Source: Polytrichum commune
Taxonomy: Eukaryota > Streptophyta > Polytrichopsida > Polytrichales > Polytrichaceae
Assembly: GCA_950295325.1 (NCBI GenBank)
Contig: OX485807.1
Location: 47,046,796-47,110,795, forward strand
Direction of reading: 5' to 3'
Length of the DNA stretch: 64,000 nucleotides
Part shown: one piece after another, positions 44,598-62,723 of the stretch
Layout of the letters: each line of letters opens with the position of its first letter
Numbering within the stretch: the first letter of the stretch is position 1
The notes under the pieces: generated by a model
What the model saw: the letters and a program-made list of their open reading frames with translations, nothing else
What the model was told of the DNA's origin: nothing
Database searches by the model: none
Translations under genes and position numbers: made by a program

Positions 44598-47500
44598 GTG
44601 CCAATCCGCTTCTCACAAAGTGTATAAAATTGTCCACTTTTCCCTGTGGACGTGGAATCGAAATTCAAACAATATTGTTAGAAGATTACTACTATCAACA
44701 CACGTAGTTTCATTGATGACTTGGAGTCGGCGATGGTTTATGGCCTTTGTGATGAACAACAAAGCAGTCAAGCATTAAAGTTTCAAGCACCGTTTATGGA
44801 ATGTTCTGTACACATACATTTCAGTTTTTAGATGTTCTATACACAAACGCTTCAAATTTTACACGTTGTGTAGATGTATATTTTTATGCACCACATTTGA
44901 CCTGAAGAGGAGGTCAAATTTAGTGTGCATGCAAGAAAGAGAAGAAAAAATGTCACTTGTGGTTAGTTGCCATAATGACTCCCAAGTATTTGGGCACCAC
45001 AATTCTTGGATGCTTGAGAATGGAAGGTGGTTGTGTGCACAAATATAAATGAGCAATCAATCTTCTTCAAGAGGACTTCTCCTTTGGACTAGCTAGTGCA
45101 ATCATAATTTTGCACTTTAGCCATGTGGCCGGAGAATACAAGTTCACTTTTGTCATGACATAGATCCCTTGTTTTTAGTTTAATATCTTTGTCATGGGAG
45201 AGCGGTACTAGTGCAGCAGTGCTAATGACTAAGGGACTCAATAAATTGGAACCTTGTCCTACTAGCAACAGCCATAGAAGAATTTAGAAACCATGTTAAT
45301 TATATCTTATAAGAAGACTTGCTTGTGTCTCCAACCCCTTCTCAGTTGCAAGGATTGCCTTCATTTGATCTACCAAGTCTTGGGGCAATGAGTATCAATG
45401 AGTCAAGAAACCATCATCAAGTTTGTATCTCCTCTCGATTATTGAGTTGAACACGTTGATAAAACTAGAGTATGGTGTCATCAAAGTGAGGGTTAAGCAT
45501 TAATTTCAATATCAAGTTGTGAAAATTGACAATTTTTGCAATCTCAAATTTCATTTGGTGACTAAGCCTACGTTTGTGTGTCCAAGAAAAATTAAATCCA
45601 ATTGCAAATTGCAATATAATTTTCAATACTCCCTCTCTATATTATCAATTTGTGAATCCATATGTCTCAGTTTGTGCAACCACAAGAAAGATAGTGGTTG
45701 GATGTTTTGGAGCCAAAGCATGATAAAGTCAACAAGAAAAGTGGTATGCATTTCCACTGTGATACAATTTTCATATATAGTACGGGAAGCAAGCTCAAAT
45801 CTATGCAAGGGCAAACCCCTAACCACTAATAAAATGGAAATAGAATATTGGTAGGGCTATATGATTGATTGCACACTTTACCACACACAACAAAAGCCAA
45901 CCCAACGATTTTTTCCCCAGAAGTGACCCTTTTGTCAAAGCTGCTAGTATGAAAGGCAACTGCTTGGAATAAAGCCTTAACAAAATTGTCGTGTAGCACG
46001 ACGGAATGTCATTTCGAGACCATGGAGCCCTCCAATGGGGTTGAACCAAACATAGTACAAAATGTGTGCCTCATTAGTATTATGGAGATACGTATAAAAT
46101 AGATCCTAAACTAGGTGATGGATTTGAGCTAAAACGTGCTTCATTTCAAAATTTATTATGATTGGCGTGTATAGTTCAAGTATTTGGTAAGATCATATTG
46201 TATGTTAATGCGCCCCTAATTTTGAAGCAAAATATATTTTCTTAAGGTGGTACTTCACCTCACTTTCCGAAAACGGACAATTATGGAAGTATATTCTACA
46301 AACTTAAGGATCTACTTCTATCATTTATGAATGTAAATCGTGTAGTTTGCAAATAAGTATATGAAAACATCATGACCCACCTTATTAGTAATTTTAATAT
46401 GAATCAATATTATTGTTTTGAGTTATATAACTAGGAAATGTGGCTACTTGCGCCTCTAAACTGATAGGGTACAACTTCGGTTCACTTTACCATGCTTTGG
46501 CCCTTTGATGTTTTGTTAGTAGACATGTTAGTATATAGAATCGAAGATACTCATTTGCTTGAGATAAAGGAGGAGGCCCTAGATATTACATTTTATAATG
46601 TATCTTTCATTTTGACTTGAAACCCCAACACTTTTAAATGGTTGTTTCACCCCTATTTTTTTTTCATTTGAGTTCAAACATAGTAATATCACAAAACATG
46701 ATATTTTATTAGTTTTATGTGAATGATTCCTCAAAATGCCCCCCCCTCAAAAATACATGTCAATATTCAAATAAACAACTTATAAACGGTCTCAATTTTC
46801 AAACTTGAATCACTACATAATTGAAAATACAAATCATAAATTCTCATAAATATACCAAGTCATCATTGATGGGTGGAGCATTGCAGAGCAGCCCATAATA
46901 TGCATTACTATGTAACAATGCAACCATTACTTTGTAACATCACTAGTAGGAAGGGGGGTCCCTTTGACATGTGGCCCATGACATGAAAAACTTTCATGTT
47001 GGAGTTTTGAGCTCCGTGACATATTTCTTGCATGTGTGGGAGTTATGTCACTTTCATGTCATGCAAAAGGTCCATGAAGGAATGTTCTATCTTTATTGAA
47101 TTTTATAGATCTTCTAGGTAGATCTAGACCTAGATGTGAGTCATCTTCTTCATTAATTATTAAGGTAGGAGAGAGGCAATTAGCACATACAAGTGTATCT
47201 TTCATTCATCCAACATTAAAGCATTGTAATAATAGATTATAAATAATAACTCTATATATTTCACAATAAATAGTAGATAATATATTATAAACATTAAATT
47301 AATATTAATAGACCATAAATAGTAAATAAGATACTTTAAAGAGTAACTAATAAACATTAAACATTATAAATAGATAATAATAATAGATGGTAAATAGTAA
47401 ATGATATACTATAAAAGTAATTATAATAGAAGACCGTAGATAATATATAATAATATATAAACACTAAAGAATAGATAGTATATAGTAAATAATGGCAGAA

Positions 47501-47639
47501 AATAATACATGGTAGGCAATAAAAAATAAATAGTAGATAGTAAATATTAAACAATAAATATTAGACAATAAATATCAAACAGTAAATATTAGACAGTAGA
47601 TAGTAAAGGAAGGTAGTAAATTATATACAATAAATAGGA
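44598..47639. other. intergenic with unoccupied CACTA-site relative and AT-rich tract
   Basis: 46589-46865 is collinear with the two CACTA flanks joined. 45808-45912 repeats a segment found inside the CACTA element at 31757-31845 (AAACCCCTAACCACTAATAA). 47210-47600 is low-complexity AT-rich sequence built from TAGTAAATA-like words. No gene is supported. Confidence 0.5.
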
Positions 47640-48289
47640 TGTCGTGTAAACTAAGATCGTTAAATACAACAGATCGAGTGTCGTTGTCAACATCAATTAG
47701 CAAAATAAAATAGCAAACTAAAATACTAAACAACCACCTCTTCAAGATGAGAGTTTCTCTCTCCAAGCTTAAGAAACTAAAATGTCTCCTTACAAAGCTT
47801 AAGAAACTCTAAAATTCACACACAAGAGTCAAGCTATCTCTCACTCCACGAAGGGAGAATCCAAGAGTGCAAGTGGTGGAGAAAGAATGCAAAGGCTTTA
47901 CTCATAATCTACTACACTATAGCCATGAGAAAGCAACAACAAGCTCTCTCTCTCTCTCAAAACACACTCACAAGACTTGACTTGACAACAATGGCAAGTC
48001 AAGAGGCCTTCCTCTCCATACAACCCCAATCCTATGTGGAGTTCATCCATGGAGTGGATGAACAACTAACTAGGACTCCCAATGGAGTCCATTACTCATC
48101 CCAACACACATGGACTCCTAATGGAGTCCATTTACTCCTAAATTGACGTAACTTAGCCCCCGATGTCACCTCACGTGACAGCTGTCGTGTAAACTAAGAT
48201 CGTTAAACACAACAGATCGAGTGTCGTTGTCAACATCAATTAGCAAAATAAAATAGCAAACTAAAATACTAAACAACCACCTCTTCAAG
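47640..48289. repeat. 107-bp direct repeat pair, LTR-like
   Basis: 47640-47746 and 48183-48289 are identical except for one base, in the same orientation, 543 bp apart. Each starts TGTCGTGTAAAC and ends CCTCTTCAAG (TG...CA if trimmed by two). They could be the short terminal repeats of a TRIM-type element (~650 bp) or remnants of the 3' LTR of the neighbouring gypsy element. The intervening DNA has no long frame and contains TGGACTCC/GGAGTCCA inverted motifs. No clear primer-binding site or target duplication was found. Confidence 0.5.
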
Positions 48290-48612
48290 TGCCCCCACTA
48301 GCAGATAAGGAGCCCCTCCAATCGGCTAGGAACAAACACACTCATCGGTAGAGTTGTTGAACATGATGAAGTTGTTGCTACATTTATACATATTTAATTG
48401 GGTAGTAGTAATCGAAGGAATTAAACTCGTGATTGACAAGTAATCCAAGAACTGTAGGCTAGGTGCAATGTGAGCCCCATCCTTAATCGCCTTCAACAAT
48501 TAATGTTGAATTCTTGGATAACTCTTTCAATGTGGTCTTAATCCCATAAAATTTCCAACCAACTAAATAAAAACTTCACCACTAAAACATGTGGTAAACA
48601 TCCACAAAATTC

Positions 48613-51600
48613 TCAATCATGACCATTAACGGCCACAGAATGAGAGGCTTTCCGACAACGAGGACAAACCTAATTGCCAGAATGAAGAGTAAAAAGGGGA
48701 GGTGTCAAACATGCCATGTGCCATCCACATTGACATTGGTCGCACAATAACATTGTTGCAGCTCCTTTCTTCTCTCCACAAACATAACAAGGCAGACCCT
48801 GTGGTACAACCGCCAACTCGGGATGCACAGAGCCGTCGATGGGAAGGTGACATGGAGCACAATTCTTTGAATGCTCACGACATTCCCGTCCATCCTTGCC
48901 TTCAAGCAATAATATACCACTTGGCAAGACATCTTTTACCCGCAAAATCGTGCGCCCAGCCTTGACATTCAATGTCGTAGGCGCCTCCCGTTGCAAGTAA
49001 ATATAATCCCCCTTGGAAAATCTACGAACCTGAGGTCGATAAGCTCCACTGCGGATCCGGGCATACCGTAATGTATCACGATGTTGAGCAATATTTAAGT
49101 TCTCCATAGCCATAGGCATGGCCTTTTGAAAGAACGCTGCTCGGTCATGAAGACATTGAGCCCAAACATCTGGATCATCCAAGTTTACCACGGGAGCCAA
49201 TTTCTCTCGCACCGAGCTAGGTAAAATTGGTTCCCATCCATACAAGAGTTGGTAAGGACTATAGGATGCCGAAGATGCTTGGCTGCTGAAACGATAACCC
49301 ATTGCTATCCATGGTAACATCAAGTCCCAATCGCGATGGTTGCCATGAAGCAATCCATACTTCCGCAAACCGCGCTTAACCGTCTGAACAACTCGTTCAG
49401 CTAAGCCATCTGCCTCAGGGTGATCTCTGGAAGTTGTCCGATGATCAATCAAAGCCTTGGTACACAAAGCTTCGAAAGATCCAAGAAATTCTCTCCCTTG
49501 ATCCGTCAACACCTCTGTAGGTGCTCCAAACCGTGCCAAAACTCGATCAAGAAATGCCATAGCCGCCAATTCTGAGGAATTTTGGGGAAGAGCCACGAGT
49601 TCAATCCACTTACTAAAATGCTCCACCATCACAAGCACATACTTGGAGCCACGTGGAGTGATAGTAGGCGGTCCGGCAAAATCCAAAGACCAACGATATC
49701 CCAAGCCCATAATAGGTAAAGGCTGAAGTTGAGGTGACAAAGTATTAAAACTTGACTTGACCCGGTCACATACTTCACACCTAGAAACATAAGTGGCAAC
49801 CTGTTGATACATACCAGTCCACCAATATTGGTTGCGCAACATAGAGTGTGTCCTTCGCACTCCAAAATGTCCAAGTTCCTCGTGCACTTGGAGCACTAAA
49901 AAAACTCTTTGATCTGGCCTTGGAACGATGGGCCTTATTCCGTTCGGCCACACACGAAATAACAAGCCGTTTGCCCAACGAAACCTTGTTATTCGATGGC
50001 TAACTCTATCTCGCTCCATAGCAGATAGTCCAAGAGGAAATATCCCTTGTTGAAGTTTGTGCAAGACCGCCTGGTCGTCCCACACATCACTAACAACGAG
50101 AGATTTATCAACCTCCTCATTTTGTTCTTCCACAAGGATCTCAGCAGCCAATCCCGATATCATTGTGAGATATGTGGCAGCATGCCAACCCGGCACTGCC
50201 TCACGATCATAATCTCCATGCCACCTGGCTCCAGTTAAATCCTCATCTGAAGGACTTGGATTGCGAGACAATCCGTCTGCATCCAAGTTGGCAATTTCTG
50301 CTCGGTGAACAACTTCAAAATCATATTCCTGAAGTAACAATGCCCATCTAGCAAGTTTCCCGGTGAGCTTATCTGATTCCATAAGCCATTTTAAAGGCTG
50401 ATGATCAGTCACCAAAGTAAACTTTTGCCCATACAAATAAAGTCGAAAATGTGCAATGGCCCAAACGGCCGCCAAGGCCTCGCCTTCATAAGAAGAATAA
50501 TTAGATTCAGCACTATTATTGCTTCTAGATGCATAAGCCACCACATATTCCTTTCCCTCTTCATCTTTCTGTGTCAATACCGCTCCCAATCTCACTTCAC
50601 TCCAATCCGTGTGCAATTGAAAAGCTCTAGATACATCCGGGCGTCGAAGCACTGGCGCTGAACCGAGCCTCTGCTTCAATGTATCAAATGCCTGTTGTTG
50701 TTCCCGACTCCAAATCCATGGTTGGTCTTTCCCCGTGAGAATGGTAAGAGGTTTGGCAATCAAACTAAAGTTTTTGACAAACCTCCTATAATAATTTGCC
50801 AATCCTAGAAATGCACGAAGCCGTGGTACATCACTAGATGCGGGAATTTTGTGCAAAGCATCCACCTTCGCCTGCTGCACACCAAGACCGCCAAGAACAA
50901 TCATGTGGCCTAAATAGGGCAATTGATCATGGAAAAACTTACATTTTCCATGATGTAAACGGAGTCCCCACCGTTGAAATCGTTCAAATACCGCTTGCAA
51001 ATGTCTCACATGATCCTGTGGACTATTACTAAAGATGACAACATCATCAATGTAACATCTAGCAAACGGCAAACCAGCCAATAACTGGTCCATCACCCGT
51101 TGAAATTCAGCTGGTGCATTCTTGAGACCAAATGGCAGAAATTTCCAATGATAAAGTTGATCATTGCCATCTTTATCAATTCCCCAAAATGCAGTCTTCA
51201 CCCGATCACCCAACAACAAAGGTAATTGGTGATAACCAGACCTCAAATCCAGAGTGCTGAAGATTCTAGAAAATTCCAGTGCATCAAACAACTCCTCCGG
51301 CATCGGCATTGGATATCGATCCGACTTGGTCTTGCAGTTGACTGGACGATAATCACCACACATCCGTTTTTCCGTCCAGTTGCCAAAGATATCCTTCTTT
51401 GACGGCATAACCGTGGCACAAGCATACTCTCCATTGGAGAGTTCAATCAATTCCGCTGCCAATAACTCTTGACGTCGAGTTTGAACACCCAACCTTTCAG
51501 AGGTACTAAGTCTGTACGGCCGTCTGAAAATAGGGTGGTTGTCCTCGAGTTGAATACGAACATGTTTACCTTTATATTCTTCAAGATCATGAAGACTAAA

Positions 51601-51756
51601 GGCAAAACAATTACGGTAAGAGTGAATAAATGCCCGTACCTTTCGTGCTTCGGCACCAGTAAGCTTTGGCCCCACTTCAATTGGCCAATCGTCAAACTCC
51701 GTGGTTTCCTTCTTCATAGAAGGATTGCCACTTGGTGCCAGCACAACCTGTGATTG
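48613..51756 (-). CDS. Pol: reverse transcriptase, RNase H, integrase and C-terminal PHD finger
   Basis: Continues the same frame after TAG 51757-51759, with no ATG at its beginning. Numbering from the GTG at 51744: RT with MCGDYRPVN, TLDLRSGYHQ, LPFGLKNAPAEFQRVMD and active site YIDD (231-234); RNase H with HTDWS (D380), YASRS and VTDHQPLKW; integrase zinc-binding HEELGH/CEVC (621-659); integrase core LDFAG (D688), TDQGREF (D748), HPEADGLAERV (E783). The C-terminal ~40 residues form a PHD finger: CYVC (986-989), CDQC (1001-1004), H1009, C1012. The TAG at 48670-48672 cuts it where PHD fingers usually have Trp; the last Cys pair (VCPRC) follows in frame and the frame ends with TGA at 48613. 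RT and integrase residues appear intact. Confidence 0.88.
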
Positions 51757-52587
51757 CTAGTCCGTGGAGAGGGCAACACCTTTGCCCCCATCATCTGCAC
51801 TTGAATCCAAATGCGTATCATCTCCACTACAATCAGTTTGTGTAGCTAAATAGCTACCCACATATGAAGTATCACCAAGAAATAGAAGTGGAAACATTTT
51901 ATGGACCTCCAACTTCCCAAACTCTTGGGCCAAAGCCGACAAAACACGTTGGGCTCGAAGATCTTCCGCAACATGAAGTTTCAAAGGAAATAATCCCTCG
52001 GTGTCATTGACCTCAATGTGATCCTTGGATTGCGGCTCCATTGCCCCCTGACCATTGTTCTCTGCCCTCAGAGTAAGCAATTGGTCATCCATACATTGTT
52101 GAGCAGCAAGACAAATTCCAATTATCCACACAATGCTATTAAGATCCATAGCTTGCCCCAATAGGAAACGTCTCTGACCTTCCTGAAGCCCATGAGCAGC
52201 CGTGGTACCTGTAAGAAAACCCATGGCGCGTTGCCGCTCATCTGCCGTAGGTTCCTCATAAGTTTGGGATTTTGAATCCCAAACCATGCCAGGTCCACGA
52301 GATCGAAATGCAAAAGACTGTGGATATGTCACAAAAGTAGGTAGTGCACCTCTCGGAATGCCCACCTTGTTAATTAATGCAAATGGCAAGGTGTCATCCT
52401 TGGTAACTGCCAAGGAAACACGATGATCATCTAAAATATCATCCACCTTGCGATCCATAAGGCGGGGAATGCGGGCAATCGCCGCTGAAAGCACCCGAGG
52501 TGATACCAAGTTGGTCCAAAACCAACGAGGCCGATGAGCAAAGGATCCCAAAGATGCAGCATCCAGAAATGTTGGAGTACCCAGAAT
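51757..52587 (-). CDS. methyltransferase C-terminal part (continuation of polyprotein after TAA)
   Basis: In the same frame as the preceding segment, directly after the TAA. It carries the remaining methyltransferase motifs: a motif VIII-like HRPRWFWTNL (DNMT3 enzymes have HRARYFWGNLPG there), a target-recognition stretch, then ADERQRAMGFLTG and LLGQAMDLNSIVW, equivalent to motifs IX-X. About 110 residues of linker follow, to the TAG at 51757-51759. The first plausible start codon in this segment is not an ATG near its beginning, so it is not an independent gene. It is the second half of one enzyme cut by a nonsense codon, and the methyltransferase of this copy is probably inactive unless the stop is bypassed. 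Confidence 0.8.
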   Translation of the reverse strand: MLGTPTFLDAASLGSFAHRPRWFWTNLVSPRVLSAAIARIPRLMDRKVDDILDDHRVSLAVTKDDTLPFALINKVGIPRGALPTFVTYPQSFAFRSRGPGMVWDSKSQTYEEPTADERQRAMGFLTGTTAAHGLQEGQRRFLLGQAMDLNSIVWIIGICLAAQQCMDDQLLTLRAENNGQGAMEPQSKDHIEVNDTEGLFPLKLHVAEDLRAQRVLSALAQEFGKLEVHKMFPLLFLGDTSYVGSYLATQTDCSGDDTHLDSSADDGGKGVALSTD

Positions 52588-55500
52588 TTAGTTAATGTAC
52601 TCACCATTCTTCACCACTTTGTGCCGGGTATCACCCAATAATGGTACATTTTCGAAAATGTACCCTGGCGGAGTTGATTGGTGGGTAAACCACCATTGCG
52701 TCAATCGCATCAAATCCGCAAACAAACTAGACCTAGGATCATCCAATCCCTGGCCAGTTCCTGCCCGCGAATGGCCTTGACAAGGCCATCCTGCAATAAT
52801 CAAATCCACGTGGCCCAACCTTCTCAAATCCTCATCACTAATCATAGTGACATCTTGAGGAAGTTGACCACAACATCCATGAATGGCAGAGGCTGACAAT
52901 TGTGCGGGGTATCTCAACAACAATTGTTGGATGTGATGTCGGACGGCTCTGTTGGCTGCATACCCATTGTCCACATGAATATATCGCCAAACTGTAATTC
53001 CAGCTTCCAACACTGCCGCCAAACCTGTGCCAATGCCTCCAAAGATCTCCACAAGGACAATACCTTCAGGTGATGGTTGCCAACGAATGGGTTGAGCAAA
53101 AGAAAATGAGGATGAAGTTGGAGGTGCCTCTCCAAGCTCCAAATCCGCTACAATGTGTCGACAATGGTCGGATAACTCCTTAGGAGTTCGCCATGGTCGA
53201 GGTGGATCCTTGAAATGTCGAGCAGGAATTTGAAAAGATGATAAAAATTGTTGTTCTGCCGCATTACAAGTGTAGTCCATTGTTTCCTCCAATAAAACTG
53301 CAGCACAAGACAAATCGGCAACTGAACCGCTGCAACCAAACATTGCCTCTGCAACCATAGTCATAGCAGTGGCTGCAAATGTGACGGGAATAAATACCTT
53401 CCTGCTATCTCCAGTGGACCATCCCGGTCTAATCCATGCCTCTTCCGTCCAATTATCCAAACCAAAGCCAAGTGGGTAAAGAGCTTGCTGACCAACAAGT
53501 ATATCATAGTTGGTAGCATTAGTAACAACACACTTCATTGACAAATGGGTGTAAGTAGGCCCTGCCCCCACATGAAAAATCAAGCGTAGAGGTGCCTTGG
53601 TGTAACCTGTTGCACGTTCAGTGCCCCCTACTGAAGTCACAATAGTGAATGGATAAGGATCCAAGCTTGCTGGCGTCAATCCAAGACTGTCAGCAAGTCC
53701 TTTGCCAATCATAACCGGTTGAGCACCGGAATCCATCATAACTCTCAGTGGTGTAGCACAGATAGTGAGCATATCCGTGCGTGAAACGACAAACAAAGAT
53801 TTGTCGTTCATCAGCCGTACAACTCCAGGTTGCAAATTATGCCGTTTGCGAGCAGGCCTTGCAAAAATGTCTGCAAGATATGCCGCTCCCGACGCATAAT
53901 TCGAAAATGATGTATCCACTGCTGAAATTGATGCTGGAGGAATATCAGTTTGCTTACCAAAAGCAATGATCGCCGCATCCGCAAGACTCGCTCGCAAATT
54001 GGCTAAGTCCTCCACCTCCTCAGCCACAGGTACGTCAACCACAGCTTGGGATACTTGAAGGGATGGCAAATCCGCCTTATCTTCTAACATTCTCCCAGCT
54101 AAATGAAAAACTGCAGCAGGCTTGAAATCCGAAGCCATAAATTCCGAACCCGAGAAAATTGGCATATGGAGAATTTTATATGCCAATGCCTGCGTAACAT
54201 CCTTCGAGATGGAATCTCCATCTCTCAAAGGTACAGGGTTTTTAGCCCCAACAACAGTGGTGTCTACCAATCCAAATGAAAGAGGTAAACGTACTTGACC
54301 AATTTGATCAGCTGGTCCGGTATGGCGAGGATGTAGCACCTCGTTGCTACCACCACTCGTGGAAGCCACCGCATCTGCCAATGTTTGTGAGCGAGTAGAA
54401 GCCGCCGCCACCACCTCTCCAGCTGCTCCAAACATATACATGTCCGAACCCGAGGTGCCACCACCCACATGCGGCTCAGAAATTTGAGCAAAAGATGCAG
54501 AAGATTTGAGCTTTTGCTCAAGCTCTGCCACCTTAGCCTCAAGACTCTTCTCCCTTGGAGACTTTCCAGTGACATAACTGGCAGGCCGCATCTCAGGATG
54601 AAGTTGGAAACAATGATCCACATTATGATTAGTGCCACCACAATGGTTACATTTCAATTGTCTCTTCTTAGAATTGTCCCCTGCTTTTACTGGTTCCATC
54701 TTTTGTTTTAATTTTCCCAAAGGCTGAGTTTTCTTCTTCTTAGGACAATTGGGATCATTCTTCGAATGACCAGCTTCTCCACAACCCCAACAATGCAAAA
54801 TCTTTTGCTCCTTGACGGGTTGAGTCTCAGCTAAACTACTAGTAGCTGTGACAATTCTTCTTGGTTTCGGACTCTCTGTCATCCAAGATACCATATCCGT
54901 GGCATCATGTTGGCAAAGAGCCCGATCACATCTCTCAACCACGTCAAACGCTTGTGCAAGCGTAGCTCGGCCCTCGTAGTCGAGGATAATCCGAGGTGAT
55001 GCCAACTCAAGTAGCCGCTTGTCAATCTTAGACAAAAAGATTTTAACAAGCTGACTCTCAGCAAAAACACCTCCCGACTCCACAGCAAATCGCGCGAGTC
55101 GCGTATACATGGTCCGTGGAGTATCATCCTTCTCTTGGCGGAAATCCTGGATGCGCTGCATCTGGTCTTGCCGAAACCCACCATACTCCACTTCCAAATG
55201 TGTGACAAATTCAATAAGGGGATTAAACGGAGGTGGTGGACCAACAATCGTCAATGCTGCCTGTGTAGCACGTGCCACCCGTGAAAGGGTTGCCGTGCTA
55301 CTGCTAGCCACCATTGGCCCAAGTGCCAGTTCCGTGTCCTTAGACTCCGCCGGCGATTCCTCCTCCTTTAAGGTGGGTGGAGCTAAGGTAGCAACCGCCC
55401 CATCCTTAAGGGCTGAAATGAGCTCAACCCGAGCCTCCCAATACTGCTCCACCTCCCGAAGTTGTCGCTGATGACCCTCTGTCCAGCATTCATAAGTTTG

Positions 55501-55683
55501 GAGTGCCTCATACTCCAAATGTTGAGGCAGAAGTTCAAAGGCATACCAATCATTGAAATTGGAAGACCTTTGGCGTTTCTCCTTAATCCAGGTACGAAAC
55601 CGGAGTTTCCAATCGGACAAGGAAATGCCCCCAGCTCGACCTGAAAACCGATCACGCACTGAATTGTGGCGATCGTCCTCCAT
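52588..55683 (-). CDS. Gag - protease - methyltransferase N-terminal part (first open segment of polyprotein)
   Basis: 1031 codons from a true ATG. Residues ~150-260 are a retrotransposon Gag capsid-like region. Two zinc knuckles follow: CWGCGEAGH...C at 298-313 (C-x2-C-x4-H-x6-C, longer than usual) and CNHCGGTNH...C at 345-358 (standard CCHC). An Ala/Ser-rich, acidic linker leads to an aspartic protease with the active-site motif MMDSGAQPVMIG (DSGA at 651-654). From residue ~874 comes a cytosine-5 methyltransferase: motif I VEIFGGIGTGLAAVLEAG, motif IV GWPCQGHSRAG (catalytic Cys ~968), GLDDPRSSLF, and motif VI FENVP (~1011). The frame stops at TAA 52588-52590 between motif VI and the next methyltransferase motif, which continues in the same frame. 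Confidence 0.85.
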   Translation of the reverse strand: MEDDRHNSVRDRFSGRAGGISLSDWKLRFRTWIKEKRQRSSNFNDWYAFELLPQHLEYEALQTYECWTEGHQRQLREVEQYWEARVELISALKDGAVATLAPPTLKEEESPAESKDTELALGPMVASSSTATLSRVARATQAALTIVGPPPPFNPLIEFVTHLEVEYGGFRQDQMQRIQDFRQEKDDTPRTMYTRLARFAVESGGVFAESQLVKIFLSKIDKRLLELASPRIILDYEGRATLAQAFDVVERCDRALCQHDATDMVSWMTESPKPRRIVTATSSLAETQPVKEQKILHCWGCGEAGHSKNDPNCPKKKKTQPLGKLKQKMEPVKAGDNSKKRQLKCNHCGGTNHNVDHCFQLHPEMRPASYVTGKSPREKSLEAKVAELEQKLKSSASFAQISEPHVGGGTSGSDMYMFGAAGEVVAAASTRSQTLADAVASTSGGSNEVLHPRHTGPADQIGQVRLPLSFGLVDTTVVGAKNPVPLRDGDSISKDVTQALAYKILHMPIFSGSEFMASDFKPAAVFHLAGRMLEDKADLPSLQVSQAVVDVPVAEEVEDLANLRASLADAAIIAFGKQTDIPPASISAVDTSFSNYASGAAYLADIFARPARKRHNLQPGVVRLMNDKSLFVVSRTDMLTICATPLRVMMDSGAQPVMIGKGLADSLGLTPASLDPYPFTIVTSVGGTERATGYTKAPLRLIFHVGAGPTYTHLSMKCVVTNATNYDILVGQQALYPLGFGLDNWTEEAWIRPGWSTGDSRKVFIPVTFAATAMTMVAEAMFGCSGSVADLSCAAVLLEETMDYTCNAAEQQFLSSFQIPARHFKDPPRPWRTPKELSDHCRHIVADLELGEAPPTSSSFSFAQPIRWQPSPEGIVLVEIFGGIGTGLAAVLEAGITVWRYIHVDNGYAANRAVRHHIQQLLLRYPAQLSASAIHGCCGQLPQDVTMISDEDLRRLGHVDLIIAGWPCQGHSRAGTGQGLDDPRSSLFADLMRLTQWWFTHQSTPPGYIFENVPLLGDTRHKVVKNGEYIN

Positions 55684-56031
55684 TTCGTCGAACGTGCCGA
55701 CACTCCAAATCCGAAGCCTACAACACTATATTCGTTATTTGGAGACTTTTTGTTAATTTTGAGACTATTTAAGGACGTGGCTTTCACATTTATAGGAATG
55801 AAAACACTAAAAATATGCTATGTTCCCAATTTTGGAAACAAATAAGAGACTCAAATGCATGGAACTACACATTAACAATAAGAAAATGGGATATATGAAA
55901 ACATTTGCATATGGAAAATCAATATCATATTTATTGAATAGGGGTTGAAGTACAAAATGCAAGTGGAATATCCAATATTAGGCGAAAGTCCTAGAAACAT
56001 AATTCCACAACTACATGTATGTTAATATAGC
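55684..56031. other. boundary between gypsy element and ParB-like module
   Basis: AT-rich. No LTR matching 47640-48289, no primer-binding site and no coding region were recognised. The left edge of the next module cannot be placed exactly. Confidence 0.4.
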
Positions 56032-57020: not shown

Positions 57021-57740
57021 TCATATTAATTTATTGAGTCTAGCGTAGCCGTACAATCTCCTAAATTCCTCATCTTGTGGGCCTAGAGGCCTATTGCCAA
57101 TTGGGTTGGAGAGCACAAAATCCGGGACACTTCCGGGGTGATAGGCAAGCCTCCTAATGTAGGGTCCTAGTTCACTCTCTAGAAAGTTGTCATTTCTATC
57201 GCTTTCCCAAGGATCCGGGAATATGCAATTGCCCGGGGGATTGAGAATACTCTTTGCCGGGCTGTCGTCAATGAGGAGTGTGTTATCCGGGGTGGGCCAA
57301 CAACCGTGGGGAACCCCCTCCAACATAGGGACGCCCACCCAGAGGTTCTTCCTCAGGACCTTTAAGAATTGAGGCCCATGACCTCCTCCAACCTTGGGTA
57401 CAATATTGCCACTACGGTCATAGAGGTCATCGCAGTGTTCTTGACCGAGAAGCAAGCATGGCATTGCGAGTTCTCGGAAAAGGAAACCGACGATGGCCTT
57501 CGTGTTGTCCATGAGCATAGAGCTCCAAATGATGACATGGGCGAAGCCAAGGACCTCACGAAGGAAGCTCCTCAAACCGGGGCGGGCACGTACAACCTTC
57601 TTATTTATGAGAGTATCGAAATGTCCGCCGTAATCCATGTCTTGTGGACTACGGAAGGGCCCCTTGGACGCACTATTCGAGATATGTTTGGATTGACAAA
57701 GCACCCCATTGAGGTCAAATATTATGAACGGTTTCATCAT
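57021..57740 (-). CDS. FCP1/NIF-like HAD-family protein
   Basis: 239 codons from tandem ATGs at 57740. HAD motifs in order: IIFDLNGVLC (motif I; nucleophile Asp kept, second Asp replaced by Asn), ARPGLRSFLREV then VIIWSSM (motif II, Ser), a lysine-rich segment around KVLRKNLW, and NTLLIDDSPAKS (motif III, DD). NIF/FCP1 phosphatases, which act on the RNA polymerase II CTD and other phosphoproteins, have RPG..FL and L.IDNSP at these places. The D-x-N change makes full phosphatase activity doubtful. It lies just downstream of the ParB-like gene on the same strand. It is a distant relative of the FCP1-like domain inside the CACTA accessory protein (27.55-28.14 kb). No transmembrane or signal segment is seen. 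Confidence 0.7.
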   Translation of the reverse strand: MMKPFIIFDLNGVLCQSKHISNSASKGPFRSPQDMDYGGHFDTLINKKVVRARPGLRSFLREVLGFAHVIIWSSMLMDNTKAIVGFLFRELAMPCLLLGQEHCDDLYDRSGNIVPKVGGGHGPQFLKVLRKNLWVGVPMLEGVPHGCWPTPDNTLLIDDSPAKSILNPPGNCIFPDPWESDRNDNFLESELGPYIRRLAYHPGSVPDFVLSNPIGNRPLGPQDEEFRRLYGYARLNKLI

Positions 57741-58083
57741 GGGCGCGCTTGGTTTTCCCGCGGGGTTGCGACATATCTCCGACGGACCCTGTGATGGAAC
57801 ATTCTATCTAGGTAAATGGTACTACTCAAGAAAACCAATTGACAAGCATGGATAAACTCAACACAAATTATAAGGCCAAAAATAATCCGAACCATCCAGT
57901 TGAAAAATTGGTATTAATGTAATTGGTGATATACATTTGGTGAATAATATACATTGTCGCAAAAAATATCTGTTGAAGTTAATGGAATCTATGCTAACAA
58001 AATTGTATCCACCCGCCGGGCGAAGTCGAGGATTGAACTCGATAATATACACACGCCACGAAGGAGGCAGACAAGGAAGTTTT

Positions 58084-61000
58084 GGACGCGCGTCCGTAAC
58101 GTGGGAGGCATGCTCAAAGGTTGATTACCTCTTCAAGGGCGAGGTCCGCGCCAGCAGTGCCTCCCTCACCTGGCCCCGTCATGGGCACAGGATCCGGACG
58201 CGCGTCCGCAAAATTGTCCAGATCTTCGACCACCAACAAGGTGTCTCCAGCCGCTTGCGACCCTTGAGTATCCACGTAAGGCTGATCCTCCTCTGTGGAG
58301 TCTTGGCTGCCCCGCATATGTACATCTTCATCGCCGATGGGGGCATTGCCTTCATTGACATCTGTCTCGGCGGCACCCGCCATGTCACGTGCCGGTATCT
58401 CCTCCACTCCTGTAGGATGAGAGGAGGGCTCCTCTGGAGTGGCGACAACAAGGGGAGAGGGCGGGACAATCAACGCGGGGGCTGGATAAGCATGCTCGGG
58501 TATATACACCGCATGGCTACTAGACGGAGGCCGCATGAGAGTGGGGGGCATAGACATGACGGCATCGGGAGCTGTATAGACTACAGGGGGTCTTGCCTGC
58601 AAGCTCTGCATCAGGCTCATAAATTGTTGACTTTGGGCCAAGAACTGTTGATTTTGGGCCATGAGATCGGCGTGCCTTCGAGCAGACTCCAACCTAGCTT
58701 GCTCCATCTCAGCTTGGATGGCGGCCATCTTTTTGGCGTGCTCCTCGTTAGCTTCTCGAAGCCGTTGGTCAAGCTCTTCCTTCATTCGCCTCTCCATCTT
58801 CTCGTCCAATTCGGACACTGACATCGGCTCTTTCTTCACCTTGCCAGGTTCCGTAGGCAAGGCAGAGATGGCATTGTGAATCCTAATCTCATCCTCGTCT
58901 TCATCGGAGAGCTCCAAGACCGCGCCTTCAGGGTATTCGTTGTATGGCGTCTTGTTCCTCTTTCGTCGACTCTCACGATATAGAGAGATATCAGGCCTCA
59001 ATATCAACTCCAGCACATCCCTCCCCTCCATAGGGGGTAGATCTGAATGTTGAGATCCCCCTCCAGATGAAGCGGTGCATCCGCCTTCTGCCGCAAGGTC
59101 CACATCCTTCTCGGCCATAACTCCTGGAGCACGAGATGGACCCGCAGTTGAGGGAAATCCAACTCGAGAGGTGGGAGTCCCAAAAGGTGAGAGAACAGGG
59201 GTATGAGGGACCCTTATCGGAGTGAAGTTCACGCGTGCCTCCTGCGCATCCGTGTCGTCTGTTCCCAGCAGGAAAGCACTTGGATTAATTGGGTCGCGAA
59301 CAAGGCCGTGTAAAGGCTCCTGTGTGGAGGGTTGCGCTCTTGGGGAACTGGGATCTTGGTCCTCTTCAGGGTCTGTCTCCATTCCGGGCATTGCCTCTTC
59401 TCTAGAAGAAAGAGGCACAACAAGATGGGGTGTAAGGACGTCCATGATGTCCTGGATATCCATTTTGGAGGCCATTACCCTGTGAGTATGGGCGTCATCG
59501 TAGTCGGAATCTTGCACAAAAGAATTCACCTGCAAGCCAAGCATCTGGACCATAACAAGAAAATTAGATAAGAACAATAGTGGTGATTGCATATAAATGA
59601 GGCTAGATGTCAACACGTTATACGGACGCGCATCCGTAAAACCACCACTCAAAAGTTGGACAATTTTACGGACGCACGGTCGTAAAATTCACATGCACTT
59701 GATACTGGGTTTTTACGGACGCGCGTCCGTAAAATAACTATGCAAAAGATAGGTGGGTTGAAAGACAAACAAATACTCACCAGTGCTGCATACATAAACT
59801 TCGTGCCTCCGAAGACGTTGTAAACTGTCTCACTCATGACAGTTAAAGCCTTCAAGACCCCTATATAAAAGTCCATCCGGAGCTCGAATGCCGGATAGAT
59901 TGCATGCATTGTCTCCTCAACAAGCTCCTTGGGATGTGGTGGCGGCAACGAATAGACTTTCCTGAACACCTCGTGTGGTTTAATGGGCAATCGCCCAGTT
60001 GGGGAAGACTTGCGTGTTAAGAAATAAAGCTGCACAGCTCCCACTTGCTTCACCCCCCTTGCCTCTTGAATGAAAGTGATCCCTTCTGTCTTCGCTGGGA
60101 TGTAGGTGCTGTGGTACATATCGTATTCGAGGTCCATCGTTGATGTGTACAGATGGACAATGGATGTGGACCTCTCTTGTTCTACAATCCATAACCACAC
60201 ATGAGGCTCGAAGAGGGCAGGCGAGCGATAGCTCTTGAAGGCTTTTAAGAAGGGCTCGTAGAAGGGTGCTCCCGCAACGTCTTGCTTCCATGCTCCGGGA
60301 ATTGCACGAAAATAAAAAATGGCGAAAGGGCAACCCCTGGGGTCATCTCTCACAGAGGCTCTTGAAGCATGGGTGTCCCATGCGCCGAACTTCATGCCCT
60401 TTGCGACCGTGCAGAATCTTGCAAACCCTCCAAATTTCGCGTTCTTTTTCCTATCGAGAAAGTGAACATACAACCCTGCCTCCCTCTCGTCGATGGATCC
60501 CTTCTTTTCGTTCCTTCTGGATCGTTGGGCAAGGAAGGATGATGCCCCTCTTATCAAAGCTCGCATTGAGACGCCATTGATGTGGTATTCACCCTTCAGC
60601 TTCCTCCAATTCTCCCACACGATCTCACCATCACTATTAATGAGGTTGTGGGTGGGTAACAATTTGCTAATCTCCCTTACAGCCATGGTCTTCTTCTTTC
60701 TGTAATCGCACCATTCCTTAATGTGGTACGTGGATGGCTTCATGTGCTTCGGCCGCTTCAGAAAGATTTTGGGATAGGGCAGAGTTCTTCTAGGAGTTTC
60801 TAGAAGAATGTGTTCTGCTGCCCTGTACAGCTCCGAGTCCATCAATCCTTGGAGGGGACGAAAGAACTCTCGCAGGATTGGTGGTACCTTAACTTTTGAG
60901 TCGCTCTTGTAGGTGTTCTCCGTATCTGGATTGACAAGGTCGCCGTTGTTGTGGGCATCGAAAAGTCGCAACCATATTGACCACGTCTCTTCTGTTGCAG

Positions 61001-62723
61001 TGATGAGCTTGAGTTCGCCTTTTAATTCATGCACTGTTTTCATGCCGCTTGTCTTCATGTCTATACTCGAGAACTTTGTCAATATGGCATTGCTGAATGT
61101 CTGCAAGAGGCGCGAATTGCAAGAAATCAGAACATTGAATTCAGTACAAATTAAATTCAAATATTTGAAGCAGTGGGAGGAGAAGGGCCACATTTACGGA
61201 CGCACGTCCGTAAATCTATTTGAGTAACATACCTGCCATTTTGGGTTCTTCACGACAGCATTATCTCTTTCTTTTGGGGGACATTCGTGCTCCACCCACA
61301 AGGTCCTCCCAGCCACGATGTTGGCTGCCCATGAAGCCTCGAACTGCCTCACTTTATTCTCCTGGTTCATGAAGGCAGATATTGCTATGAGTTGGTTCGA
61401 GTCCTTGGAATGCACGACGAATGCCTTCCAATATCGGATTGTCTCCTTTAATGGGCTTTTCCACTCGTCGTCTTCAAGGAGAGCTTTTGCAGCCATTACA
61501 CTATGTTGGCCGTCGACAATGTAGAACTCTCCATTCTTGAGAATCGGCCAATTTTTTTCGTTGACTTCAACGATAGGATCCTTTGGTGTCACACAAATGG
61601 TTTGCCTGTCAAACTTGGGGTTGTTCATGATGTTGTTCATTTGCTACCATACACCGCTTTCTTCTTTTGCTCTGGTATTCATACTTTCGGTGCCCTTGTG
61701 GCATTTGTAGACGTCTACTTCGAAAGTAAAATACCTGCCAAGGGGCCAGCATCCCTTCGTCTTCTCATCGAACTCTTGGAATATTTTTGTTGAGAGTTCG
61801 GCGTCAGGGCGTTGACCCTTTTTGAGGAGTGGAGCGACAGTCAGTGTAGAGCTGACATCCGGACCCTCTGTTAGTCCAGAGTCCATCTGCGAGTGAGAGC
61901 GTTTACTCGCCTGTCTGCTCCCTCTTGATGCACCACTCTGCGAGGGCCTTGAGGATTCCGGCACTGGTTTAGGCACACGCTTAGGTCGTTCAGGAACGAC
62001 TTGTTTTTTCTTATCTTTCCCCTTTCTGGCCTCTAGCAAGGCTCCATTTACTCTTGTTACATTGTTCAAGAGTCGTCCAAGCCGCTTACCCGTCCAAGGT
62101 GCATTGCATGCATAGTCTTGGAACTCCGTCTGGAGATTGAAGCAAGCCGCATCTGTACTAGCATTCTCACACTCATTTTTGTTGAAGGGGTGGTAGGATT
62201 CGTGCAAAATGAAAGTGACCCGATCTTCTTTCTTCTCAAGGTCTATTACTACATAATCCCCTTGTGCCACTGCACACTCTACTGTCCACGATTTAAGCTT
62301 TATCCACTTCTCAGCTTCATCTATGTCCGTCTTCATTTGATATGCAAATCTAAGCACAAATATTTCTTTCTCGTCCTTTTCTACCAATACTGTCCAATTA
62401 TCCACAATTTCATCTTGTGGCTTGTAATGGTCGTTGGGACTTATGTCTTTGATGGCTTCTGGTAGCGGAGGAATGAGAGCTTCTGCGAACATCTCAATTG
62501 CATGTCTCTTTTTAGATGCCATCTGCAAATGATAAGATAGATAAGTTAGAATTCTTGGCAAAAGATATAGATCATACTTTACGAACGCGCGTTCGTAAAG
62601 TTTTCCAAATTGTCTCAATTATATTTTTGGATCCAAATGAAAAGATACATTTCTTCCAAATACGCATAACGCGTATATTATATACTCAAATATCTCTATA
62701 AGTTACGGACGCGCGTCCGTAAA
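58084..62723. repeat. dispersed CpG-rich palindromes, core GGACGCGCGTCC
   Basis: Eight copies in and around the ParB-like gene: 58084-58095, 58196-58207 (inside coding sequence), 59621-59638, 59664-59687 and 59711-59734 (all intron 2), 61192-61215 (intron 1), 62577-62600 (ACGAACGCGCGTTCGT variant) and 62703-62722 (upstream). Full copies read ACGGACGCGCGTCCGT flanked by TTT/AAA. The variant at 62577 changes both arms symmetrically, which suggests selection for dyad symmetry. Imperfect copies are those at 59621, 59664 and 61192. I did not find the core elsewhere in the window. Confidence 0.85.
58114..62522 (-). CDS. three-exon gene with ParB-like DGQH motif, methyltransferase-like Gly motif and coiled coil
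   Basis: Exons 62522-61233, 61100-59781 and 59544-58114, all phase 0 (CAG|GTATGT, CTG|GTGAGT donors), 1346 codons. The first exon begins at ATG directly after TTTGCAG, so a further 5' exon is possible. An unknown N-terminal domain is followed by a basic Ser/Pro linker. Then comes a ParB/Srx-like segment, EFYIVDGQHSVMAAKAL (DGQH at ~337-340), with the pattern of prokaryotic ParB-type and DGQHR proteins. Exon 2 is unrecognised. The exon 2/3 junction reads ETVYNVFGGTKFMYAAL then MLGLQVNSFVQDSDYDDA, resembling the FGGxG...AALxLG segment of amino-type (N4C/N6A) DNA methyltransferases, but no DPPY motif was found. Exon 3 ends in a long charged coiled coil (MERRMKEELDQRL to about LMQSLQA) and a Pro/acidic tail. 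An in-frame TAG at 61641-61643 (codon 294) interrupts exon 1. Function unknown. Confidence 0.6.

What the first reader, a model, noticed from the sequence alone, without database searches (positions are those of the whole stretch)
52100..53064. Ty3/gypsy retrotransposon carrying a cytosine-5 DNA methyltransferase between protease and RT
The Gag-protease frame continues into a methyltransferase with motif I (VEIFGGIGTG), motif IV (GWPCQGHSRAG), FENV (motif VI) and, after one stop codon, HRPRWFWTNL and LLGQAMDLNS (motifs VIII, IX-X). The motif order is the normal linear one, like DNMT3 and unlike plant DRM. Capture of cytosine methyltransferases by retrotransposons has been reported in dinoflagellates and charophyte algae; a polyprotein with the enzyme placed between protease and RT is unusual and suggests self-methylation of the element or manipulation of host silencing.
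Basis: partly seen in the sequence, partly recalled or inferred. Interest (0 to 1): 0.92.

Follow-up and report, generated by a model that had tools for sequence, protein, structure and literature searches.

The report
Moss retrotransposon carrying DNA methyltransferase
A jumping gene present in at least 180 copies in a moss-like plant carries its own DNA-methylating enzyme, apparently made together with its coat protein, which extends a rare, known case from green algae to land plants and suggests how the enzyme may reach the element's own DNA.

The parts
47640..55725 (-). Window copy of the element, 5'-truncated: lacks A1, 5' leader and about 64 N-terminal codons of ORF1
   Evidence: 97.2% identical over 7542 aligned bases to copy L013, starting inside its ORF1; no match to A1/5' leader in the window
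54610..55725 (-). Gag part with two zinc knuckles (54745-54792 and 54610-54651)
   Evidence: motif positions; zf-CCHC Pfam 0.0038, below its cut-off, in copy L024
53473..53748 (-). Aspartic protease (MMDSGAQPVMIG ... DILVGQQALYP)
   Evidence: Pfam Asp_protease_2 2e-4 and gag-asp_proteas 8.6e-4, both somewhat below their cut-offs; motif positions
52072..53085 (-). DNMT3-related C5-cytosine methyltransferase domain, motifs I, IV, VI, VIII, IX, X in linear order
52588..52590 (-). Premature TAA inside the methyltransferase, a defect of this copy
   Evidence: frame open in the 18 of 20 fetched copies with ORF1 of 1356 codons or more
51760..52071 (-). ORF1 tail after the methyltransferase, little constrained
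   Evidence: dN/dS 0.65 between subfamilies
51751..51759 (-). Conserved in-frame stop TAG followed by CAATCA (UAG CAR YYA type): presumed readthrough site between ORF1 and ORF2
   Evidence: 33 of 33 copies TAG, 32 of 33 CAR YYA; genome-wide pattern rows
51732..51740 (-). 5' arm of a possible long-range RNA stem 3' of the UAG
   Evidence: fold z -2.64; 91.8% of cells of this helix paired, one pair exchanged on both sides between subfamilies
51651..51659 (-). 3' arm of the same possible RNA stem
50899..51375 (-). Reverse transcriptase core
   Evidence: PF00078 1.1e-29; YIDD at 51028-51054
50323..50637 (-). RNase H
   Evidence: PF17917 1.1e-37
49417..49899 (-). Integrase H2C2 zinc domain and DDE core
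   Evidence: PF17921 1.6e-16, PF00665 1.1e-13
48670..48795 (-). PHD finger at the C-terminus of ORF2, cut short here by TAG 48670-48672
   Evidence: PF00628 6.8e-5, just below cut-off, here; 1.4e-10 and 1.1e-9 in uncut copies L024 and L032
48182..48289 (-). B1 repeat
   Evidence: 98% to B of L015; 99% to B2
47747..48180 (-). A2 repeat
   Evidence: 97.9% to A2 of L015
47640..47746 (-). B2 repeat, right terminus (...CGACA)

Best explanation
This is a degenerate copy of a large, recently active Ty3/Gypsy-type family in a moss-like land plant that carries a DNMT3-related C5-cytosine methyltransferase as the last domain of its Gag ORF. Shown from sequence: domain order, conserved catalytic motifs, purifying selection, conserved UAG, split direct repeats, 4-bp target duplications, PHD finger on the integrase ORF. 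Inferred: (1) most ribosomes stop at the UAG and make Gag-protease-methyltransferase, while a minority read through and make the RT-integrase-PHD fusion, so the methyltransferase is packaged in excess with Gag; (2) inside the particle it methylates the element's own cDNA (or the RNA-DNA intermediate) before integration, giving a copy that enters the genome already bearing host-like cytosine methylation; (3) the internal B1|A2 junction (GACA-GC-TGTC) templates both ends, and the DDE integrase trims GC and inserts the TGTC...GACA ends; (4) the PHD finger steers integration by reading histone H3 tails.
Against: No enzyme activity, readthrough or cDNA methylation was measured. The Klebsormidium enzyme showed no activity in yeast, called inconclusive by its authors (PMC5890265). 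The copies are not CpG-depleted: o/e 0.67-0.75 in nine copies against 0.55 for the rest of the window. C/T differences per site are about equal at CG and CHG and higher than at CHH, but transversions follow much the same order, so this is no clear mark of methylation by anyone. Motif IV is PCQ where DNMT3A has PCN. Within young family-1 copies dN/dS of the methyltransferase is 0.56, weak selection at short range. The RNA stem is not supported in subfamily 3 (z -0.19), and the number of pairs with double changes is no higher than in shuffles (301 of 500). One genomic place has AAG at the stop site. A Closterium protein shows no stop between enzyme and the start of ORF2 (a gene model).
Confidence: 0.5

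Rival explanations
1. The methyltransferase acts in trans on host chromatin or on rival elements (silencing competitors or dampening its own copies), not on its own cDNA.
For: Large copy number (123 scored of 353 candidates; 140 scored of 485). A silenced but tolerated element could persist; the Discussion of PMC5890265 raises host benefit by slower transposition.
Against: Gag-linked position favours particle-bound action; no nuclear-targeting evidence was sought.
Confidence: 0.2
2. The domain works as a nucleic-acid-binding, RNA-modifying or chaperone part of Gag rather than a DNA methyltransferase.
For: Gag-level placement in one ORF with zinc knuckles; the Klebsormidium enzyme inactive in yeast (PMC5890265).
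Against: SAM-binding, catalytic Cys, ENV and motif X residues are kept in nearly all covered rows, more than a binding role needs.
Confidence: 0.15
3. It is a host DNMT3 gene into which a retroelement inserted, or a chance fusion.
For: None found.
Against: Same protease-methyltransferase-UAG-RT order in the 20 fetched copies, 15 of them with separate insertion sites read to the base, and protease-methyltransferase collinearity in Sphagnum, Calypogeia and Marchantia proteins.
Confidence: 0.01
4. The UAG between ORF1 and ORF2 is not read through; ORF2 is made another way (splicing, reinitiation).
For: Readthrough not measured; L053 breaks the CAR context.
Against: UAG with CAR YYA kept across three subfamilies although CAA/CAG and TCA/CCA/TTA vary; ORF2 stays in frame directly behind it.
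Confidence: 0.15

Closest known systems
KnitGypsy-Dnmt3 of Klebsormidium nitens (de Mendoza 2018, PMC5890265; parts 1-3 of 7 of the text, the Discussion and passages read; figures not held)
   Same: Gypsy domain set, unrearranged Dnmt3-type enzyme, DIRS-like repeat arrangement, purifying selection on the enzyme
   Different: There the enzyme is described as in the Pol ORF; here it ends ORF1 before a conserved UAG. Host here is a land plant. The main text there does not contain PHD, Gag, readthrough or target site as words. Sequences could not be compared.
SymbioDIRS-Dnmt3 / SymbioLINE-Dnmt of dinoflagellates (PMC5890265)
   Same: Retroelement with captured C5 methyltransferase; the SymbioDIRS enzymes were active in yeast
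   Different: DIRS (tyrosine-recombinase) or LINE elements; unrelated to the Gypsy case according to that paper
PAT-type DIRS elements (PMC4157794, passages read)
   Same: Split direct repeats A1-B1-A2-B2
   Different: PAT elements use a tyrosine recombinase; here a DDE integrase domain and 4-bp target duplications. The Dam-like adenine methyltransferases of DIRS elements are structurally unrelated (PMC5890265).
DNMT3 and DRM of plants and animals
   Same: Fold and motif I-VIII similarity, linear order as DNMT3
   Different: PCQ instead of PCN in motif IV; no ADD or PWWP family among the Pfam rows; embedded in a Gag ORF
Gammaretroviral gag-pol UAG readthrough (PMC5009743, passages) and plant-virus UAG-CAR-YYA sites (recalled)
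   Same: In-frame UAG between Gag ORF and Pol ORF; CAR YYA context
   Different: Protease and methyltransferase lie before the stop here

Membership tests
DNMT3-type C5 methyltransferase | Catalytic motifs I, IV, VI, VIII, IX, X in linear (not DRM) order | tested here: met
DNMT3-type C5 methyltransferase | Best profile and fold match to DNMT3 among solved structures | tested here: met
DNMT3-type C5 methyltransferase | PCN in motif IV, as in DNMT3A (a usual trait, not a strict criterion) | tested here: not met
   PCQ here; alignment, counts. I therefore write DNMT3-related, not DNMT3 orthologue
DNMT3-type C5 methyltransferase | Place in a tree with DNMT1, DNMT3, DRM, CMT | not tested
   No reference sequences obtained; the tree holds transposon-type relatives only
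Ty3/Gypsy | Protease, RT, RNase H, integrase in that order, DDE integrase | tested here: met
Ty3/Gypsy | Short fixed target duplication | tested here: met
   4 bp in 15 of 15 pairs of termini (read by eye)
Ty3/Gypsy | Two plain LTRs | tested here: not met
   A1 ... B1-A2-B2 split repeats; so Gypsy-type by enzymes, not a standard LTR element
Ty3/Gypsy | RT tree position | not tested
   no RT tree was built
PAT/DIRS | Split direct repeats | tested here: met
PAT/DIRS | Tyrosine recombinase | tested here: not met
   ORF2 of L024, L032 and the window gives rve and H2C2 and no PF00589 row
KnitGypsy-Dnmt3 | Dnmt3-type enzyme in Gypsy element with DIRS-like repeats | tested here: met
   PMC5890265
KnitGypsy-Dnmt3 | Enzyme in the Pol ORF | tested here: not met
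   Enzyme lies before the UAG in 20 of 20 fetched ten-kilobase copies
KnitGypsy-Dnmt3 | Common descent of the element | not testable with these tools
   Klebsormidium sequence not obtained
UAG-CAR-YYA readthrough site | Stop and 3' context | tested here: met
   33 of 33 TAG, 32 of 33 CAR YYA
UAG-CAR-YYA readthrough site | Measured readthrough | not testable with these tools
   needs a reporter assay

The most novel reading that the evidence does not exclude
A streptophyte-wide retrotransposon lineage, older than the split of mosses and liverworts and perhaps shared with Zygnematophyceae, keeps a DNMT3-type enzyme as a Gag-level component of its particle, pre-methylates its own cDNA, integrates with a DDE integrase from a PAT-like split-repeat intermediate, and targets chromatin with a PHD finger.
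Probability: 0.3. Interest if true: 0.85.

Novelty: new variant of a known kind. Interest (0 to 1): 0.62.

Why it matters
Cytosine methylation normally silences transposons, so an element that has kept its own methyltransferase under selection poses a direct question about what methylated cDNA gains. The published cases that I read were in dinoflagellates and one charophyte alga (PMC5890265); [quoted passage not shown] Here there are at least 186 ORF1/ORF2 junction sites (119 + 67) in a moss-like land plant, some copies with long open frames, and relatives in other bryophytes. The UAG arrangement makes a testable prediction: the enzyme is made with Gag, not with Pol. Split repeats combined with 4-bp target duplications also connect two element classes usually kept apart.

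Tried and rejected
Host gene with inserted retroelement: rejected. CpG depletion as a mark of self-methylation: looked for, not found; context of C/T differences inconclusive. Viral contigs: no match. A host DNMT3 exon was not found: with a DNMT3A fragment 47 rows had E<=1e-6 (best 1.5e-8, 34% identity); many of their places coincide with those, but I did not check each one, and first-look limits mean this shows no absence. Tree with DNMT1, DRM, CMT: not made for want of references. tRNA-type primer site after A1: no obvious TGG-type site in families 1 and 3; family 2 has TTGGCAAG, not matched to a tRNA. RNA stem: weak, one double exchange in the long helix between two subfamilies only, count of such pairs not above shuffles, none in subfamily 3. 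Relatives without the methyltransferase in the same genome were not counted. DRM is absent from the fold rows, which excludes nothing. Rows left out: L008, L032, L053 from the RNA alignment, leaving 23 of 26 distinct rows; ten of 34 listed proteins left out of the tree for length or a failed cut (P0118 and P0151 were not in that list); L049 has no junction match; L013 gave no A1 in its extension, so 15 of 16 were used; protease dN/dS between subfamilies could not be computed (saturated). In one search only 100 of 119 places are listed. In some searches I mistyped the pattern (no match); one search is the corrected one. The patterns fix the bases after the stop, so they test the stop, not CAR YYA; a pattern with those bases open did not complete. 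No paper on such elements in bryophytes, PHD-integrase Gypsy elements, or Gypsy with split repeats showed in the listings of my searches; the library is open-access only and I opened few of the listed papers.

Full report
WHAT IS IN THE WINDOW. On the minus strand, 55725 to 47640 holds one retroelement copy. Its first frame (52588-55725) has Gag with two zinc knuckles, an aspartic protease (Pfam matches somewhat below cut-off) and the first part of a C5-cytosine methyltransferase (Pfam DNA_methylase 44.5 bits, cut-off 22). After TAA 52588-52590 the same frame carries the rest of the enzyme; after TAG 51757-51759 it carries RT, RNase H, H2C2 and DDE integrase and a cut PHD finger. The repeats B1, A2 and B2 follow at 48289-47640; the left repeat A1, the 5' leader and about 64 N-terminal codons are missing. 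So the copy is dead: 5'-truncated, with a stop in the enzyme and one in the PHD finger.

HOST. The window lies in a 408-Mb assembly of 64 contigs; seven large contigs, lengths, add up to 406 Mb. The genome has LEAFY SAM domains (4 places); a LEAFY DNA-binding exon matches chain 4bhk best (110 bits, next 101), which I recall as Physcomitrium LEAFY. It is therefore taken as a land plant, moss-like. Seven chromosomes suggest Polytrichaceae, which is recalled and not tested.

THE FAMILY. A Pfam search of that genome scored 123 of 353 candidates, all 123 over the cut-off; a search with the window's C-terminal part scored 140 of 485. Exact junction patterns of families 1 and 2 find 119 and 67 places. 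These are lower bounds. I read 20 ten-kilobase copies chosen mostly for long frames, so intactness below is not a random sample. In 18 of 20, ORF1 is open over 1356-1386 codons (stop to stop) and contains the protease and methyltransferase motifs; L031 has 1296 and L032 has 1011 plus 313. In 15 of 20, ORF2 is one frame of at least 934 codons; L019, L022, L025, L030 and L031 are broken. Three subfamilies exist: family 1 (the window's), family 2, and family 3 (L032 only); their enzymes are 63% and 46% identical to family 1 (medians).

THE STOP BETWEEN ENZYME AND RT. In 33 of 33 copies with an alignment over the junction the codon is TAG; in 32 of 33 the next six bases fit CAR YYA, although they vary (CAA TCA, CAA CCA, CAA TTA, CAG TTA, CAG CCA); L053 has CAC TTA. 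Over the genome, a pattern with the stop left open finds 119 family-1 sites, 100 listed: 98 TAG, 2 TAA, no sense codon (counted by eye); for family 2, 67 sites: 66 TAG, 1 AAG. Those patterns favour young copies and fix the following bases. That UAG-CAR-YYA is the leaky plant-virus context is recalled; gammaretroviral Gag-Pol by UAG readthrough is in PMC5009743 (passages). A long-range stem in bases 17 to 106 after the stop folds in families 1 and 2 (six stretches, z -1.6 to -2.9) but not in family 3 (z -0.19). Its 9 pairs form in 91.8% of cells, with one pair exchanged on both sides between the two subfamilies; the percentage paired and the covariation score exceed all 500 shuffles, but the number of pairs with double changes does not (301 of 500), and two related subfamilies are little evidence. 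I take the stop as programmed and the stem as possible. The consequence is that the enzyme is translated with Gag and protease, and RT-integrase-PHD only by readthrough.

TERMINI. Copies have A1 - coding - B1 - A2 - B2. This split arrangement is that of PAT elements (PMC4157794, passages); a DIRS-like arrangement was noted for KnitGypsy-Dnmt3 (PMC5890265). A1 begins TGTC, B2 ends GACA, and in 15 of 15 copies a perfect 4-bp duplication flanks them (read by eye). At the inner B1|A2 junction the sequence is GACA-GC-TGTC, as if the two extra bases were those an integrase trims; this is inference. A G-rich tract precedes B1 in the six copies printed. A1 and A2 are 98.8-100% identical over each copy's longest aligned piece, 300-567 bases (15 copies), so these insertions are recent.

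PHD. ORF2 ends in a PHD finger (PF00628 1.4e-10 in L024 and 1.1e-9 in L032) whose best sequence matches include CHD4, PHF12, KMT2D, ATXR5, DPF3 and UHRF1. A role in targeting is inference.

SPREAD. Relatives include named proteins of Calypogeia fissa, Sphagnum troendelagicum, S. tenellum, Marchantia polymorpha and Closterium (120 of 204 listed). Sphagnum P0090, Calypogeia P0102 and Marchantia P0143 and P0151 align with moss ORF1 across protease and enzyme; Closterium P0152 aligns with the enzyme and then, without a stop, with the start of ORF2 (E 1.1e-5), though it is a gene model. In the tree of 29 rows, family 3 groups with metagenome sequences (100/96) and the Sphagnum, Marchantia and Calypogeia rows, with four others, form a group (100/100), apart from families 1 and 2; Closterium is a long, unsure branch. 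That suggests several old lineages; descent of the element as a whole was not tested.

FUNCTION. Best reading: particle-borne enzyme that methylates the element's own cDNA. For: Gag-level position, kept catalytic residues, selection, and the published CG activity of SymbioDIRS-Dnmt3 enzymes (PMC5890265). Against: no CpG depletion (o/e 0.67-0.75 in nine copies against 0.55 background); C/T differences per site are 0.034 at CG, 0.032 at CHG, 0.020 at CHH in family 1 (0.067, 0.058, 0.034 in family 2), but transversions fall in a similar order, so no context stands out; and the Klebsormidium enzyme gave no activity in yeast, an inconclusive result there. PMC12344493 (passages) again notes DNMT3 members embedded in retrotransposons, citing the 2018 paper.

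VERDICT. Real, well supported in anatomy, function inferred; a new variant of the known Gypsy-Dnmt3 kind, in a land plant.

Noticed in passing
window 57024-57803 (-): ORF of 260 aa with an NIF/FCP1-like phosphatase domain (PF03031 4.4e-13) beyond the truncated end of the element.
   Followed up: partly
window 58117-62618 (-): Four long adjoining ORFs without Pfam match at E 0.01; one (61197-61643) has a DGQH motif and a weak ParB-like hit (E 0.017). Possibly another mobile element.
   Followed up: partly
window 47251-47610: AT-rich degenerate tandem array directly beside the right end of the element.
   Followed up: no
protein P0062: A protein assigned to a Candidatus Obscuribacterales MAG is 76% identical to the window enzyme, probably eukaryotic contamination of that MAG.
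   Followed up: no
L022, L025, L030 (family 2 copies): These copies have a long open ORF1 but stops in ORF2, so enzyme-only expression would be possible from such copies.
   Followed up: no
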